Source of the DNA: Blautia sp. An249 | GTDB taxonomy: Bacteria > Bacillota > Clostridia > Lachnospirales > Lachnospiraceae | DNA: 64,000 nucleotides | Direction: 5' to 3' | Assembly (NCBI RefSeq): GCF_002159835.1 | Contig: NZ_NFJL01000020.1 | Span: 1 to 64,000 of the forward strand | Shown: one piece after another, positions 11,302 through 60,142 of the stretch | Layout: every line of letters begins with the position of its first letter | Numbering within the stretch: the stretch's first letter is position 1 | Notes under the pieces: generated by a model | What the model was told of the DNA's origin: nothing | Seen by the model: only the letters and a program-made list of their open reading frames with translations | The model's database searches: none | Made by a program: the position numbers and the translations under genes

Positions 11302-11949
11302 TTACAAGAAAAAATCCTCAAGCTCCCGGACGCTGGAAACGATTTTCAGAGGCTCTGCCTGGGCCAGTTCTTCCTGGGTTCCGTATCCATAGGAGACTGC
11401 CACACAGTCCAGTCCTTCTTCCCTTGCGCCATATACATCGTGTTCCTTATCCCCTACCATAATCACCTGTTTTCTCTTATTGGAGAATCCAAGACGTCTG
11501 AGGGCTTCCGCAATCACTTCGGCTTTTCTGGTCCTGCAGCCGTTCATTTCACTTCCTACAATCACATCAAAATACGAAGTCAGCCGGAAATAATCCAGGA
11601 CCTGATTTACAAAATACTCCGGTTTGGAAGAAGCTACCGCCAGCAAATATCCCCGTTCTTTCAGAGTTCCCAGAAGCTGTTCAATTCCCTCATAGGGGTA
11701 GTTTTCATAGATTCCGACTGTGGCATACCGTTCTCTGTAATACTCCACCGCTCTTCTGGCATCCGCTTCTGAAAAACCGGCATAGCGCTGAAACTGCTCC
11801 ATAAGAGGAGGACCTACAAATCCTTCTAATTTCTGCAAATCTGGTTCTTCAATCCCCATTTTTGACAGGGCATATTGGACAGATTTGGTAATTCCCTCTC
11901 CAGATGCGGTTAATGTTCCGTCTAAATCAAATAAAATTGCTTTATACAT
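11302..11949 (-). CDS. HAD-superfamily hydrolase, phosphoglycolate phosphatase-like
   Basis: A 215-residue cytosolic phosphatase. HAD motif I is DLDGTLTASGEG (about 8-19), motif II is the VASSKPE stretch (about 105-111), and motif III/IV is VIMVGDKEHDVYGA (about 160-173). A helical cap (about 20-85) marks subfamily IA, which includes Gph and PpaX. The substrate cannot be read from sequence. AGGAGAG and AAGGA precede the ATG. It is third in the kinase operon. Confidence 0.9.
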   Translation of the reverse strand: MYKAILFDLDGTLTASGEGITKSVQYALSKMGIEEPDLQKLEGFVGPPLMEQFQRYAGFSEADARRAVEYYRERYATVGIYENYPYEGIEQLLGTLKERGYLLAVASSKPEYFVNQVLDYFRLTSYFDVIVGSEMNGCRTRKAEVIAEALRRLGFSNKRKQVIMVGDKEHDVYGAREEGLDCVAVSYGYGTQEELAQAEPLKIVSSVRELEDFFL

Positions 11950-55380: not shown

Positions 55381-55977
55381 TCATTTCTCTTTCATCCAAA
55401 TAGAAAACTGCTGAACTAACCGCCTGATTTCCCCGGCTACCTGTCCGACTCCCGCTTCTGTTTCCATCCAGTTTTCTGAAGTTATTCCATCCGGAAAAAC
55501 AGGCCGCACTATGATTTCTGTCTCCGGATACGCTTTCTGATAATACATCAGCGCCCTTCTCGTATGATAACTTTTACAGCATAGAATGGCTTTATTTATA
55601 ACCAGTCTGTTATCGTCAGTCACCTTTCTGGAGAAACAGGCGTTTTCCATCGTATAGGAAGCTTTGTCTTCTCTTAAGATAGCTTCTTCGGGAACCTGAT
55701 TTTTCACCAGCACATCTTTCAGAAACTCCCATTCTGTCTGATAATCGCCGTCATACTGTTCCCGTTTATCTATCGGTCCCCGGAAAGCTTCTTCGGTAAT
55801 ACTGTGACATCCGCTCGGCAATATGTACGGAGCAGCTCCCCGCTGATACAATCTGGCCGCTTCCTCCGCCATCTGAGGATAACGGTTGCCGGGAACAAAA
55901 ATTATATCCGCTTTTTCAATGGGATCTTCTACAAAAATAAATTCTGAAATCTGCTGTAAAAATTTCTCGTATTCCAT
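55381..55977 (-). CDS. YdcF-family (DUF218) protein
   Basis: A 198-residue cytosolic protein of the YdcF/SanA DUF218 fold. It has FVPGNRYPQMAEEAARLY (about 27-44), ASYTMENACF (about 106-115) and AILCCKSYHTRRALMYYQKAYP (about 131-152). YdcF binds S-adenosylmethionine in E. coli, but the cellular role is not known. GGAG precedes the ATG. It is the gene downstream of the split amidase, 50 nt away with a stem-loop between. Confidence 0.85.
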   Translation of the reverse strand: MEYEKFLQQISEFIFVEDPIEKADIIFVPGNRYPQMAEEAARLYQRGAAPYILPSGCHSITEEAFRGPIDKREQYDGDYQTEWEFLKDVLVKNQVPEEAILREDKASYTMENACFSRKVTDDNRLVINKAILCCKSYHTRRALMYYQKAYPETEIIVRPVFPDGITSENWMETEAGVGQVAGEIRRLVQQFSIWMKEK

Positions 55978-56027: not shown

Positions 56028-56762
56028 TTAAGTGGTAATCAGTGTGGTATAACCCGCGTTTCTTAATTTCTGCTCCATGGCAATGGCATTTCCCAATTGC
56101 ATAAAAGCTCCTACCTGTACTCTATAAAGTCCGTTATCGTGAAGCAAAAAGGCCGGATAATCCTGATCCAACAGCTCATACAAAAGTTTATCCGCATTTT
56201 CTCTGGAACGGAAAGCGCCCACCTGTACCCGGTAATACATGGGCTCCTCCTCTACCGTCTCCATATCTAATGTGCCTAATATTGCATTGGCAATGCCATC
56301 CACTATCATATTAAAATTGTTATCAAAAATCTCATTATCTCCTTCTGTATTCAAAAAACCGGCTTCCACTAAAATTGCGGGCATCTTGGTTCTCCGAAGT
56401 ACGACCAGGCCCGGTCGCTCTTTCACGCCCAGTTCATCAAAACCTGCCTCCCCCAGCGCTCCCAGTATATTCTGAGCCATCTCGTACTTTATTCCGCTTT
56501 TATCATATACCAGTACTTCCGCACCTGCATACTGGTTTGCATCCGGGCTGGAATTTCTGTGAAAGGAGATAAAGTAATCCGGCTTTGCCTCATTGGCAAT
56601 CTGTGCTTTTTCAAAGGGTGTCTGATACACATCTTCTGTTCTGGTGTAAAGCACATCTACGCCGTTGTCCTGGAGCTTTTCCCCAACCGCCAGCGTCAGT
56701 TTCAGATTATCATCCTTTTCCTGACGGCCCTGAAAAACAGCACCTGGATCTTCTCCGCCATG
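56028..56762 (-). pseudogene. CwlC-like N-acetylmuramoyl-L-alanine amidase with SPOR repeats, C-terminal part (split gene)
   Basis: This is the 3' part (244 codons plus stop) of an amidase_3/SPOR gene. Reading from 56762 gives HGGEDPGAV, then GRQEKDDN, SFHRNSS and LVEAGF, the metal and catalytic motifs of the family. Two SPOR repeats follow (YYRVQVGAFRSRENADKL and LYRVQVGAFMQLGNAIAM). An in-frame TAA lies just upstream of the HGG codons, because the sequence beyond is the end of a mobile element. The missing first ten residues lie at 59568-59597. The joined protein of 254 residues matches the size and layout of Bacillus CwlC. An internal GTG at 56654 could start a 208-residue product, but it would lack two zinc ligands. 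Confidence 0.9.
56754..56762. repeat. Left attachment-site core (direct repeat copy 1)
   Basis: TCCGCCATG; on the minus strand CATGGCGGA encodes His-Gly-Gly of the amidase. The inner flank has the palindrome TTGCGCAA at 56776-56783. Confidence 0.85.
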
Positions 56763-56888
56763 TGCCGGGTGTTAATTGCGCAAATTTTTTGCCTTATCGC
56801 GCGGAACGCGTTCACGCGTAGCATTAAATTACGATCCCTTTCAGACTGATTAGGGGATATAGAAATATGTGAGATTCGATAACCTTTC

Positions 56889-58499
56889 CTAAGATTCTAC
56901 ACTGGAAACACTGGAAAATAAAAGCTCTGATTCATTGCCGAAATTATAGGTGATTTTGATCTTGCAGTTTTCGTAGACTGTTATTTCACTTATCATTTCT
57001 GCCACAATATCTCTATCCAGTGATTCAATGTCTTTTAATTCCAACAGCCTTTTCAACCACGGTATTTCAAAAACATCTTCTGTCACATTTTCTTTCTTCT
57101 GTTCCAGTGTTTCAATCTGTTTAGAGTAAAGTTCTTCTTTTTTTAGATAATCCTCTCGGTAAGAAAGAAATTCTTCTTTGGAAATCAGTCCATCTTTATA
57201 ATCTTCATATATGGATTTTTTGAGCTTTTTTACACGTTCCAGCTCTGCTTTGATTTTGCCAAGTTCTGTATCGGTAATCTTTTTCACCTTTGGACTTGTG
57301 AAACTCTGTGACTGTACCAGTTCTTTCAAATCATCTACACTGTGGACGATTGCTTTTAAATCATTTAATACAATGTCCTCCAAAACAGCCAGCGGTAACG
57401 TATGCGGCATACAATACTGTTTGCCATTTCTTTTATATGTTCCGCAATAAAAACTATATGTTTTACTTCCATCTGCACGACGCCACATATTTTTTGCCAT
57501 TGCTTTGCCACAATCACCGCATTTTACATAACCGGCAAAGATATTTTTATTCGTTTCCAAATCCAGCTTTCTTGTTCTTTTTGACAAGAGGGATTGCGTT
57601 TTTTCCCATGTTTCTTTATCTATGATTGGTTCATGGGTATTTTCTACGATTATCCAATCCTCTTTCGGCATTCTCTTCTGCTTACTTCTCATACGCTGGC
57701 GCTTTGTTCCCTGTACCATATTCCCCACATACATTTCTCTATGAAGAATACTGTTGATTGTAGAGTAAGACCAATACGCTGTACTCTCCAAACGGTTACA
57801 GTTCTTGTATTTTTCACCATTTACCCTTTTGTATTCTGCCGGACAAAGAATACCCTCTGCATTTAACAGTTTTGCAATCTTTTGTTTGCCATAACCTTGT
57901 ACATATAAGGAAAAGATTCTACGGACAACATCAGCAGCGTACTCATCGATCACTAGCTTATTTTTATTCACAGGAGATTTCTTATAACCATAACTTGTAA
58001 ATGCCCCTATAAACTCACCAGCCTTTTGTTTTGATTTTACGGTTGCCTGTATTTTTTTTGAAATATCTCTTGCATATTGTTCATTGAAAATGTTTTTAAT
58101 CGGGAGCAGCATATCATATGCCTGTTTCATACTATCAATACTGTCTGTTACCGAGATAAAACGTACTCCCATTTCTGGAAAGTATCGCTCTAAATATCGT
58201 CCAGTATCAATGTAATCTCGCCCGAATCTGGATAAATCCTTTACAACGACACAATTTACCTTCCCATCTTCAATGTCTGCAATCATTCTCTGGAAACTAG
58301 GGCGGTTGAAATTCGTTCCTGAATAACCGTCGTCAATGTAAGTATCAAACAATATAAAATCTTCTTTTTCAGCAATATACTCCGTTAAAAGTTTTCTCTG
58401 ATTTCCAACACTGTCGCTTTCTTCCTTATCACCATCTTCTTTTGATAATCTAATATAGATTGCAACATGAAATAAGCTTAATACCTTTTGAAGTTTCAT
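56889..58499 (-). CDS. Large serine recombinase (TndX/Tn4451-type)
   Basis: A 536-residue site-specific recombinase. The resolvase-type catalytic domain (about 10-160) has the nucleophile Ser19 in YIRLSKEDG, then DDGYSGTNFNRPSFQRM and VVVKDLSRFGRDYIDTGRY. The recombinase domain (about 185-300) follows. A zinc ribbon has CGDCGKAM near 337-344 and YCGTYKRNGKQYC further on, and a coiled coil lies near 395-490. Such enzymes cut both att sites at a central dinucleotide without host factors, and need a directionality factor to excise. Its gene ends 126 nt from the left repeat. The ATG at 58499 has only a poor AGGCG upstream. Confidence 0.95.
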   Translation of the reverse strand: MKLQKVLSLFHVAIYIRLSKEDGDKEESDSVGNQRKLLTEYIAEKEDFILFDTYIDDGYSGTNFNRPSFQRMIADIEDGKVNCVVVKDLSRFGRDYIDTGRYLERYFPEMGVRFISVTDSIDSMKQAYDMLLPIKNIFNEQYARDISKKIQATVKSKQKAGEFIGAFTSYGYKKSPVNKNKLVIDEYAADVVRRIFSLYVQGYGKQKIAKLLNAEGILCPAEYKRVNGEKYKNCNRLESTAYWSYSTINSILHREMYVGNMVQGTKRQRMRSKQKRMPKEDWIIVENTHEPIIDKETWEKTQSLLSKRTRKLDLETNKNIFAGYVKCGDCGKAMAKNMWRRADGSKTYSFYCGTYKRNGKQYCMPHTLPLAVLEDIVLNDLKAIVHSVDDLKELVQSQSFTSPKVKKITDTELGKIKAELERVKKLKKSIYEDYKDGLISKEEFLSYREDYLKKEELYSKQIETLEQKKENVTEDVFEIPWLKRLLELKDIESLDRDIVAEMISEITVYENCKIKITYNFGNESELLFSSVSSVES

Positions 58500-58570
58500 A
58501 TATTCGCCTATTCAATTGTTGCCCTATTAAAAATATTATACCACAAAATACGGTACTTTCCCATATCAGA

Positions 58571-58690
58571 CTACCTGTTTTGAACCTCTTTAAGATGAAT
58601 TCTGATGATACGGATAAGCAATTCTTTCGCTGAAAACTTCGATAAAAATTCTCTTTCCACAGTGTATTGGATTGGCTGTTTCTTTTCCAA
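58571..58690 (-). CDS. 39-residue conserved-looking small protein upstream of the recombinase
   Basis: A TTG at 58690 with a strong AAGGAGG 9 nt upstream opens a 39-codon frame starting MEKKQPIQYTVEREFLSKFS and ending RIIRIHLKEVQNR, stop at 58571. The TVEREFL...KELLIRIIR pattern recalls short proteins encoded before serine recombinases in clostridial elements. It could be the recombination directionality factor or a regulator; neither is shown. Upstream lies a 7-bp inverted repeat AATAGGC/GCCTATT (58737-58743 with 58755-58761). The rest of 58500-58858 is AT-rich and I see no other gene. Confidence 0.65.
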   Translation of the reverse strand: MEKKQPIQYTVEREFLSKFSAKELLIRIIRIHLKEVQNR

Positions 58691-58858
58691 ACTTTATCGT
58701 CCTCCTTGTTTCAGCTATCCATTCTCAACATACGCAAATAGGCTTATCCAATATGCCTATTCTCACTTCATTTTTATCAATCTGACATATAAAAGTCTTC
58801 TTTCCGCGAAAAAGCAGCAAACCTTTTAGATTTACTGCTCTCGTATCGTTCTATTCGA

Positions 58859-59173
58859 TTATAAATGTCTGTCCGTATCTCTTGCACCATACATCAATCT
58901 TCGTACTTCCATCACATCATCAATGACTACATAATAAATCACATAGTTTCTTACATAAATCCGATAGTAGGGATAGTCCCGCCTTTTTGCAGAGCGATAC
59001 GGCTCAAAAGCAACAGGATTATTCAATCTTTCCAAAATGGCAGTTTCAACATCATCAATCAGGCGTAAAGCTGCGTCCTCATTTTTCAAAACATTGGTAA
59101 TGTAATTTGCTGTACTGATTAAATCCTGTTCAAAAAGTGGTAAATACCTAAGCTGATAGGATTTATTTTCCAT
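58859..59173 (-). CDS. ParE/RelE-superfamily toxin
   Basis: A 104-residue type II toxin of the RelE/ParE fold. It has YLPLFEQDLISTANYI (about 10-25), the ERLNNPVAFEPY loop and YRIYVRNYVIYYVVIDDVMEVRRLMYGARD (about 70-99). Members poison gyrase (ParE) or cleave mRNA (RelE); the target is not evident. It overlaps the antitoxin gene by 11 nt. It likely kills or stalls cells that lose the element. Confidence 0.9.
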   Translation of the reverse strand: MENKSYQLRYLPLFEQDLISTANYITNVLKNEDAALRLIDDVETAILERLNNPVAFEPYRSAKRRDYPYYRIYVRNYVIYYVVIDDVMEVRRLMYGARDTDRHL

Positions 59174-59423
59174 GTACCGCGCTCCTTACATGACTGAAAA
59201 CTGTTTCATGGGAAAGTCTTTCTTCTGTTGCTGCTGCCTGTCTGTCAGCTTCGTCAAGTTTCATTTCAACATTATCCGTCAGACTGGCATATTCTTCCAG
59301 ACTTAGTACGACCATTGCACCATATCCGTTTTTTGTAAGATATACAGGACTTCCGCTGTTGACAATGGATTCAATCTCTGGAAATTTATTTCTGAGGTCA
59401 GAAACAGGGCGAATTTGTATCAT
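59163..59423 (-). CDS. Phd/YefM-family antitoxin
   Basis: An 86-residue antitoxin with the N-terminal Phd/YefM DNA-binding fold (RPVSDLRNKFPEIESIV ... PVYLTKNGYGAMVVLSLEEYASL). A C-terminal helical tail wraps the toxin. I use the ATG at 59423, with GGAG 9 nt upstream; a TTG two codons earlier is too close to it. It is first in the pair and normally represses the operon. Confidence 0.92.
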   Translation of the reverse strand: MIQIRPVSDLRNKFPEIESIVNSGSPVYLTKNGYGAMVVLSLEEYASLTDNVEMKLDEADRQAAATEERLSHETVFSHVRSAVHGK

Positions 59424-59558
59424 ATTCAAGCACTCCTTTTATATCGTTTATTCTATCTTAATTTTATCAAAATATTATCATAAAGGCAATGCTTTTCAGA
59501 TTTTCTAATTTCCTTTCTTTCTGTAATATCGTTGCCAGTCTTCCTTGCGCAACTGTGT

Positions 59559-59567
59559 TCCGCCATG
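59559..59567. repeat. Right attachment-site core (direct repeat copy 2)
   Basis: TCCGCCATG, identical to 56754-56762. The element-side flank has TTGCGCAA at 59545-59552; the gene-side flank encodes DAG of the amidase. Confidence 0.85.
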
Positions 59568-59597
59568 ACCTGCATCCAGCATTATTGTATATGGCAT
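59559..59597 (-). pseudogene. CwlC-like amidase, N-terminal 13 codons (split gene)
   Basis: An ATG at 59597, with GAGGTG 6 nt upstream, opens MPYTIMLDAGHGG. This is the canonical start of amidase_3 proteins up to the first zinc ligand. In the present arrangement the frame then runs into the element and stops at 59505, giving a 30-residue product without function. The gene-side sequence joins in frame to 56753 when the element is removed. Confidence 0.88.
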
Positions 59598-59625: not shown

Positions 59626-59653
59626 TAGCATATGCAGAAATTTTCTGATTGGT
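59626..59653 (-). promoter_or_regulatory. Possible sigma-K-type promoter of the split amidase
   Basis: On the minus strand AC (59653-59652), 17 nt and CATATGCTA (59634-59626) match the Bacillus sigma-K form (AC, 16-17 nt, CATANNNTA). The start would fall near 59619, giving a 22-nt leader with the Shine-Dalgarno. B. subtilis cwlC is under sigma-K. The motif is short and could be chance; sigma-E, with CATACANT, is also conceivable. Confidence 0.45.
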
Positions 59654-59674: not shown

Positions 59675-60142
59675 TTAATTAAGAATGCCGTTTTCTTTTA
59701 AATACTTCAGAAAAGCTCTGCATCCTTCCTGAACATCCTGATAGGTTGTCTCAAATTCTCCCGTATACCAGGGATCTGCAATATCACGGGAATGTCCCGT
59801 AAAGTCCAGAAGTTTGTACACTTTATTTTCCTTATCCCCACCTACCATACGGGTGATATTCTTTATATTGTAACGATCCATTCCTATTAAATAGTCATAG
59901 TTCTTATAATCCGCTTTTCGAAGCTGAACTGCCCTGTGATCCCCAAAGGGAATCCCTTTTTCTATTAGTTTTGAACGGGTTCCACGATGAATGGGGTTCC
60001 CGATTTCTTCTGTGCTGGTAGCAGCAGAGTCAATGTAGAACGCTTCTGCCTTTCCTTCCTTCGCTACCATATCTTCAAAAACATATTGGGCCATGGGTGA
60101 ACGACAAATATTCCCATGACACAAAAACAGCACTCGTATCAT
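59675..60142 (-). CDS. Low-molecular-weight protein-tyrosine phosphatase
   Basis: A 155-residue cytosolic phosphatase. The P-loop CHGNICRSP (C-x5-R-S, about 8-16) is at the N-terminus, and the general-acid Asp lies in ADPWYTGEFETTY (about 121). Relatives reverse tyrosine phosphorylation of polysaccharide or stress proteins. AGGAGG precedes the ATG at 60142. It lies upstream of the split amidase, with 77 nt between. Confidence 0.93.
   Translation of the reverse strand: MIRVLFLCHGNICRSPMAQYVFEDMVAKEGKAEAFYIDSAATSTEEIGNPIHRGTRSKLIEKGIPFGDHRAVQLRKADYKNYDYLIGMDRYNIKNITRMVGGDKENKVYKLLDFTGHSRDIADPWYTGEFETTYQDVQEGCRAFLKYLKENGILN

What the first reader, a model, noticed from the sequence alone, without database searches (positions are those of the whole stretch)
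56028..59597. A CwlC-like amidase gene is precisely split by a 2.8-kb serine-recombinase element
The sequence shows the first 13 codons of an amidase at 59559-59597 and the rest at 56028-56762, both on the minus strand. Both pieces share the nine bases that encode His-Gly-Gly. Removal of one repeat and the interior restores a 254-residue amidase with two SPOR repeats, the layout and size of the sporulation hydrolase CwlC. The interior carries its own recombinase. This is the arrangement of skin in sigK and SP-beta in spsM, which are excised only in the mother cell. If the same holds here, excision controls a cell-wall lysis enzyme. It could also be a plain insertion that disabled the gene.
Basis: partly seen in the sequence, partly recalled or inferred. 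Interest (0 to 1): 0.93.

Follow-up and report, generated by a model that had tools for sequence, protein, structure and literature searches.

The report
Spore amidase gene split by ICE remnant
A gut bacterium carries a cell-wall-cutting sporulation gene that is interrupted inside its catalytic motif by a small piece of mobile DNA with its own recombinase, and related bacteria show that such interrupted genes stay under selection, which suggests that the gene is restored by DNA excision when spores form.

Summary
Observation confirmed. The reconstructed attP is a dyad centred on the CA of that His codon. The element is an internally deleted relative of Tn916-like ICEs found at the same motif elsewhere. 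Of 28 named loci whose recombinase is at least 60% identical, 26 lie in this amidase, cwlD-like or pdaB-like genes. In the genus 9 of 43 orthologues are split and 34 whole. The gene co-occurs with spoIVA and has a sigma-K-like promoter. In two relatives sharing a recombinase-only element the split amidase has dN/dS 0.02, so it is not dead there. Best reading: a skin/gin-like switch in which excision, probably in the mother cell, restores the amidase. Excision was not observed, and this copy belongs to the mobile, possibly young, clade, so a plain recent insertion remains possible. In the same genome spoIIID is also split, by a different serine-recombinase element of about 10.4 kb.

The parts
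59559..59597 (-). 5' part of the amidase gene (13 codons, ends at HGG)
56028..56762 (-). 3' part of the amidase gene (HGG to TAA; rest of Amidase_3 and the SPOR domain)
   Evidence: no in-frame start before HGG
56763..59567 (-). the 2,805-bp integrated element, taking the crossover at the CA of the His codon
59559..59567 (-). CATGGCGGA, left junction (attL core)
56754..56762 (-). CATGGCGGA, right junction (attR core)
59545..59552 (.). TTGCGCAA arm of attP at the left end of the element
56776..56783 (.). TTGCGCAA arm of attP at the right end of the element
56889..58499 (-). large serine recombinase, 536 aa
   Evidence: Pfam; nearest solved chains TnpX and SprA/YokA
58571..58690 (-). 39-aa ORF, TTG start with a ribosome site, candidate recombination directionality factor
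   Evidence: no Pfam or PHROG match; function inferred
58726..58756 (-). conserved box GCATATT-GGATAAGC... upstream of the small ORF, possible promoter or operator
   Evidence: core pattern in 28 of 33 leaders
58859..59173 (-). ParE-family toxin
59163..59429 (-). Phd/YefM-family antitoxin
59626..59634 (-). CATATGCTA, sigma-K-like -10 of the amidase, with AC 17 nt upstream
59675..60142 (-). flanking low-molecular-weight tyrosine phosphatase
55381..55977 (-). flanking YdcF-like (DUF218) gene

Best explanation
A late mother-cell (CwlC-like) amidase gene is interrupted at its catalytic HGG codons by a site-specific integrative element, a 2.8-kb internally deleted derivative of a Tn916-like ICE. 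The element's large serine recombinase, helped by the 39-aa protein encoded just upstream (candidate directionality factor), recombines attL with attR at the CA of the His codon, which removes the element as a circle and restores the 254-residue amidase. Excision most likely happens in the mother cell, which lyses anyway, so the spore chromosome keeps the element; the toxin-antitoxin pair would punish loss from growing cells. Shown: anatomy, precise restoration on paper, dyad attP, recurrence at this and two other spore cell-wall genes, sporulation linkage of the gene, selection on split copies in relatives. Inferred: that excision occurs, that the small protein drives it, and that it is limited to sporulation.
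For: Precise in-frame join; attP dyad centred on the core in 11 of 12 elements, one of them a tie and one after a corrected index. 26 of 28 loci with recombinases at least 60% identical lie in this amidase, cwlD-like or pdaB-like genes. Orthologue co-occurs with spoIVA, 40 of 43 against 1 of 21. CATANNNTA upstream of 34 of 44 leaders against 3.4% of random 100-mers. Split copies in G181 and G176, which share a recombinase-only element in synteny, have dN 0.012, dS 0.62. 9 split-split pairs median dN/dS 0.053, 73 whole-whole pairs 0.086. The window copy departs at 0 of 85 columns invariant in the whole copies and its relative rate is ordinary. The host has spoIVA and sigK-like genes and a second gene, spoIIID, split by another serine-recombinase element.
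Against: No excised form was seen: the own assembly has no joined junction and no reads were available. The window recombinase is 93% identical to that of an ICE in Emergencia and sits in the mobile clade, so this insertion may be young, and its intact amidase may reflect youth. Selection evidence comes from another clade of elements. The sigma-E-like pattern before the small ORF is incomplete in the window (-10 CGTATGTT), and the box does not fit the C. difficile SpoIIID consensus given in PMC5025042. No directionality function of the small ORF was tested, and it was not seen in L025, L026, L047 and G105. The dN/dS values rest on few, non-independent pairs, several near saturation.
Confidence: 0.62

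Rival explanations
1. Plain insertion: a mini-ICE recently landed in its usual attB site and disabled a gene that matters only in sporulation; it persists because the toxin-antitoxin pair holds it and this lineage pays little for a missing mother-cell amidase.
For: The window recombinase is in the mobile clade with close relatives in other families; ICEs use the same site; no joined junction in the assembly.
Against: Amidase, recombinase, small ORF and att sites are all intact; in the genus split copies are kept under strong selection.
Confidence: 0.22
2. Unregulated excision: the element leaves at low frequency in any cell, as an ICE does, and the gene is restored only in that minority; sporulation gives no special signal.
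For: Ends and recombinase derive from an ICE.
Against: Targets are nearly confined to spore cell-wall genes in 26 of 28 loci; a conserved box precedes the small ORF in 28 of 33 leaders. Neither excludes it.
Confidence: 0.12
3. The split gene works without excision: the 3' part is translated from an internal start as a shorter protein.
For: The 3' part has an open frame from an internal GTG at 56654 (208 aa).
Against: No start lies before HGG in the window, G176, G210, L016, L017, L018, L024, L025, L027 and L030; a product from the GTG would lack the catalytic His and the first strand. In several others a TTG or GTG does lie before HGG, so this is not excluded for them.
Confidence: 0.03

Closest known systems
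gin in gerE of Bacillus cereus ATCC10987 (PMC5595907; passages and part 1 of 6 read)
   Same: non-phage element with serine recombinase inside a mother-cell sporulation gene, 9-bp shared sequence, extra factor needed besides the recombinase
   Different: gin is 28.6 kb with three recombinases and no ICE ends are reported in what I read; here 2.8 kb, one recombinase, target a cell-wall amidase, host a Lachnospiraceae
skin of Clostridioides difficile in sigK (PMC5025042; passages read)
   Same: large serine recombinase plus a small directionality protein; the gene is restored by excision in the mother cell
   Different: prophage-like 'skin', different target; there excision was shown by PCR, here not
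SP-beta in spsM of Bacillus subtilis (PMC4191935; passages read)
   Same: element interrupts a spore gene and is excised precisely in sporulation; its recombinase SprA/YokA is among the nearest solved chains
   Different: active phage; here no phage genes
Tn916-like ICEs with serine recombinase (L016, L017 here)
   Same: same ends, same site type, recombinase 91-93% identical, small ORF
   Different: the window element has lost the conjugation module and carries a toxin-antitoxin pair instead
Site-specific large serine recombinases of Durrant et al. (PMC10083194; passages read)
   Same: diverse recombinases converging on one conserved coding site
   Different: that paper's text as searched names a prolyl isomerase and competence genes, has no hit for amidase and one for sporulation

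Membership tests
sporulation-gene intervening element (skin, SP-beta, gin kind) | insertion inside the coding sequence of a mother-cell sporulation gene | tested here: met
   expression itself not measured
sporulation-gene intervening element (skin, SP-beta, gin kind) | short shared sequence and precise restoration of the frame | tested here: met
sporulation-gene intervening element (skin, SP-beta, gin kind) | site-specific recombinase encoded in the element | tested here: met
sporulation-gene intervening element (skin, SP-beta, gin kind) | directionality factor or recombinase made in the mother cell | tested here: inconclusive
   candidate 39-aa ORF with a conserved box
sporulation-gene intervening element (skin, SP-beta, gin kind) | excision observed in sporulation | not testable with these tools
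   no reads; joined junction absent from the assembly
Tn916-like ICE | ends and recombinase of the family | tested here: met
Tn916-like ICE | conjugation module | tested here: not met
   absent from the 2.8 kb; present in L016 and L017
CwlC-type mother-cell amidase | Amidase_3 plus C-terminal SPOR domain, about 255 aa | tested here: met
CwlC-type mother-cell amidase | sigma-K control and a role in mother-cell lysis | tested here: inconclusive
   promoter motif only
CwlD | over the TIGR02883 cut-off | tested here: not met
   joined protein 84 bits against 221.55
prophage | phage genes, or a recombinase close to known phages | tested here: not met
   no structural phage gene among the ORFs examined; best phage record 39.8% and best viral contig 40% identity

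The most novel reading that the evidence does not exclude
A lineage of Tn916-like ICEs has specialised on the catalytic codons of mother-cell peptidoglycan genes (cwlC-like, cwlD, pdaB) and has repeatedly been pared down, in the extreme to a recombinase and a tiny new-family directionality factor, into resident excision switches. In this genus the mother-cell programme (spoIIID, sigK, lysis amidase) then runs through several DNA excisions.
Probability: 0.42. Interest if true: 0.92.

Novelty: new variant of a known kind. Interest (0 to 1): 0.82.

Why it matters
Programmed excision in sporulation is best known for sigK, spsM and a few Bacillus genes, mostly with prophage-like elements. This case adds cell-wall enzymes of gut Lachnospiraceae, ICE-derived elements down to 1.6-2 kb, and a candidate new family of about 40-aa directionality factors. 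It offers a natural series from mobile ICE to resident switch, so the domestication of a mobile element can be followed step by step. It also warns that split spore genes in gut genomes should not be written off as pseudogenes.

Tried and rejected
Phage origin: rejected; no recombinase closer than 39.8% in phage records or 40% in viral contigs. Chance or assembly artefact: rejected, since the same junction appears in independent assemblies. Relaxed selection on the window amidase: its tip is long in the amidase tree (0.52), but sigK and spoIVA of this genome are divergent too and the amidase/sigK and amidase/spoIVA ratios are ordinary (1.08 and 0.83). Mother-cell promoter of the small ORF: the sigma-E pattern is met only in part and differs by clade, so I report a box, not a promoter; the sigma-70 scan found no strong site directly before the recombinase and fewer sites in the region than in shuffles (5 against a mean of 10.2). 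Joined junction in the own assembly: none. Homologues of the window ParE/Phd pair in the 80 recombinase loci: none by tblastn. A reading of L033 as a pdaB junction was withdrawn: its pdaB half abuts a second, neighbouring recombinase; the tree (47 rows) still carries L033 with the pdaB label and leaves L042 out.

Rows dropped: of 53 loci given to, 44 had a recognised start and were counted. Of 150 family genomes only the four hits that began near the His codon were followed: G105 and G123 have both ends and a recombinase, G141 the right end and a recombinase at a contig end, G032 a broken N-terminus but no recombinase or left end found. One search looked at 39 rows (L045 and G154 are the same contig); the 33 counted are those in which I saw the small ORF, so '33 of 33' for its motif describes that set. 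L046 has one that fits by eye and is not counted; L025, L026, L047 and G105 have none that I saw. Of the nine split genus copies, G199 and G161 lie at contig edges and lack a left end, and G161 showed no recombinase in 5.2 kb. Literature: ten searches ran; listings only, plus the passages named.
Full report
WHAT IS THERE. The first 13 codons (MPYTIMLDAGHGG) are at 59559-59597(-) and the rest, from HGG to a TAA stop, at 56028-56762(-); both share CATGGCGGA and the join reads 254 residues. Pfam finds Amidase_3 and one SPOR domain in the joined protein, and Resolvase + Recombinase + Zn ribbon, ParE and Phd/YefM in the interior. Solved chains matched by the joined protein include 1x60, 'sporulation-specific amidase' (that it is the CwlC domain is recalled). 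The downstream part cannot be translated from before HGG on its own: a stop lies three codons upstream with no start between.

THE RECOMBINATION SITE. Taking the crossover at the CA of the His codon, the element is 2,805 bp. In attP rebuilt from the ends, TTGCGCAA arms face each other and the best dyad centre falls exactly between C and A of that codon. Across 12 elements with both ends this centre was the single best in nine and tied best in one (G105); L017 joined them after I corrected a one-base indexing slip; G181 is offset by 1.5. Rebuilt attB has its best centre there only in G123, with L022 tied. This is the expected geometry of a large serine recombinase (general knowledge). Nearest solved recombinases are TnpX and SprA/YokA.

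Directly upstream of the recombinase lies a 39-aa ORF with a ribosome site (58571-58690). Counterparts with [YW]x[IV]xRx[FY] were seen in 33 elements, not in L025, L026, L047 and G105. In 12 pairs dN was below dS (ratio 0.08 to 0.49). The three to seven members tested match no Pfam or PHROG family except one weak chance hit at E 0.18. By position and size I take it as a candidate directionality factor; this is inference. Upstream, G[ACT]ATANNGGA[TC]A occurs in 28 of 33 leaders and in 0 to 0.4% of shuffles. It resembles a sigma-E -35 (consensus table in PMC3416734, passage) and, from recall, the B. subtilis SpoIIID box, but it does not fit the C. difficile SpoIIID consensus (PMC5025042, passage) and the window's -10 is weak. 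In pdaB-type elements the site is a near-perfect inverted repeat (by eye), so an operator is possible.

WHERE RELATIVES SIT. A scan of one genome per species kept the best 80 loci of 100. Reading the junctions beyond the recombinase of the 28 loci with at least 60% identity, 26 lie in spore cell-wall genes: 14 in amidases (L016-L027, L030, L035) and 12 in pdaB-like deacetylase genes. Six are SPOR amidases like the window's (L017-L020, L025, L026). Seven match CwlD (TIGR02883, 160-199 bits, cut-off 221.55, with the first eight model positions missing): L016, L021, L023, L024, L027, L030, L035; L022 scores only 73 bits. For pdaB, TIGR02764 (194-206 bits, cut-off 237.4, first 15 positions missing) was met by L032, L037, L038, L040 and L041. 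The other seven rest on the shared N-terminal ...FDAAWG/FDAACG... half alone; the short N-terminal halves tested (L029, L036, L040, L041) gave no family hit. L033 and L043 are unassigned.

MOBILE AND RESIDENT FORMS. In the recombinase tree (47 rows, quick method, several long branches flagged) the window sits with L016-L018, to which it is 89-93% identical although L016 is from Emergencia. L016 and L017 are ICEs of about 23 and 28 kb; of eight proteins tested (seven of L016, one of L017) seven matched TcpC, FtsK-like, Rep_trans, ArdA, DUF961, AAA_10 or lysozyme-NlpC/P60 and one nothing. 'Tn916-like' is my label from that set. The window element equals the ICE's first 59 bp plus about its last 2 kb, 85-88% identical, with the toxin-antitoxin pair between. 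A second clade, with 100% support, holds among these rows only genomes of the window's genus and only this amidase (G153, G154, G156, G176, G181). G181 and G176 carry just small ORF and recombinase (1,987 and 1,937 bp); G153, G154 and G156 (about 6.3 kb) also hold cation and phosphate transport genes (the Pfam test was on G154). G210 keeps the left site but shows a chemotaxis-receptor-like gene (named by eye) and no recombinase.

IS IT A SPORULATION GENE? In 64 genus genomes a clear orthologue (66-75% identity) occurs in 43. 40 of the 43 have spoIVA, against 1 of the other 21 (Fisher p=1.8e-12, not corrected for kinship or incomplete bins). Exact CATANNNTA lies within 100 nt upstream in 34 of 44 leaders (genus and family), 35-47 nt before the start, against 3.4% of random 100-mers and 4.4% of shuffles; AC lies 15-17 nt before it in 20 of the 34. 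The window has AC-N17-CATATGCTA. This fits the sigma-K consensus GCATANNNTA (PMC3416734). In B. subtilis cwlC acts in mother-cell lysis under GerE (PMC517825, passage) and in C. difficile cwlD is sigma-E controlled (PMC3789822, passage). sigK assignments rest on strongest hits to TIGR02846, over its cut-off in only 1 of 64 genomes.

ARE SPLIT COPIES DEAD? Of 43 orthologues 9 are split and 34 whole; the least number of changes on the amidase tree is 4. G181 and G176 are syntenic: flanking genes dS 0.67 to 1.54, recombinase 1.33, amidase 0.62-0.67 with dN 0.012, dN/dS 0.02. Nine split-split pairs have median dN/dS 0.053 and 73 whole-whole pairs 0.086 (dS under 2; pairs not independent). At 85 columns invariant in the 34 whole copies the nine split copies depart three times in all, the window copy never. 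So split genes seem to stay functional over long times in the resident clade, which points to reconstitution. For the window copy an intact gene fits either upkeep or youth.

MECHANISM AND LIMITS. Best reading: excision by the recombinase plus the small protein, in the mother cell, as for skin, SP-beta and gin (PMC5025042 and PMC4191935, passages; PMC5595907, passages and part 1 of 6). I saw no excised form in the assembly and had no reads. The listings of PMC searches showed no paper on intervening elements in these amidase, cwlD, pdaB or spoIIID genes; subscription papers and preprints are not held.

A SECOND SPLIT GENE. spoIIID of the same genome is split at TVH|K by an element of about 10.4 kb with a different serine recombinase and a macro-domain protein. 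In the genus 13 genomes, the own one included, show only half matches to the model, nine of them with both halves on one contig 5 to 16 kb apart. In eight relatives read, the 5' half ends at the same codon in all eight; my script recognised the 3' half in two. sigK matches are split on one contig in G174 and G186 and lie on two contigs in G192.

Noticed in passing
L182 (own genome, G000:C2:43800-56200), halves near 873-1001 and 11317-11475: spoIIID is split at TVH|K by an element of about 10.4 kb with a different serine recombinase, a macro-domain protein and a kinase-like protein; 13 of 64 genus genomes show only half matches to spoIIID, nine with both halves on one contig.
   Followed up: partly
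same-genus genomes G186:C51, G174:C65, G192:C96/C11: sigK-like matches are split (8.4 and 14.4 kb apart, or on two contigs), as by a skin element.
   Followed up: no
L040:4010-4612 (+) and L040:6629-6931 (-): The two halves of a pdaB gene lie on opposite strands around the recombinase, so inversion rather than excision would join them; an invertible form or an assembly fault.
   Followed up: partly
L134:15106-18907, L133 and L137: The 6.3-kb amidase elements of three genus genomes carry TrkH/TrkA and phosphate-transporter/PhoU-like genes as cargo.
   Followed up: partly
own genome, 22 places: The genome has 22 matches to the serine recombinase; which genes the other 21 interrupt was checked only for C2 (spoIIID).
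   Followed up: no
L035 and L043, just downstream of the recombinase: RelE-like toxin reading frames (named by eye) lie beside the recombinase here too, not matched by tblastn to the window's ParE/Phd pair.
   Followed up: no
L140:6804-8936 (G210): The amidase is split at the same codon, but the insert holds a chemotaxis-receptor-like gene (by eye) and no recombinase was found.
   Followed up: partly
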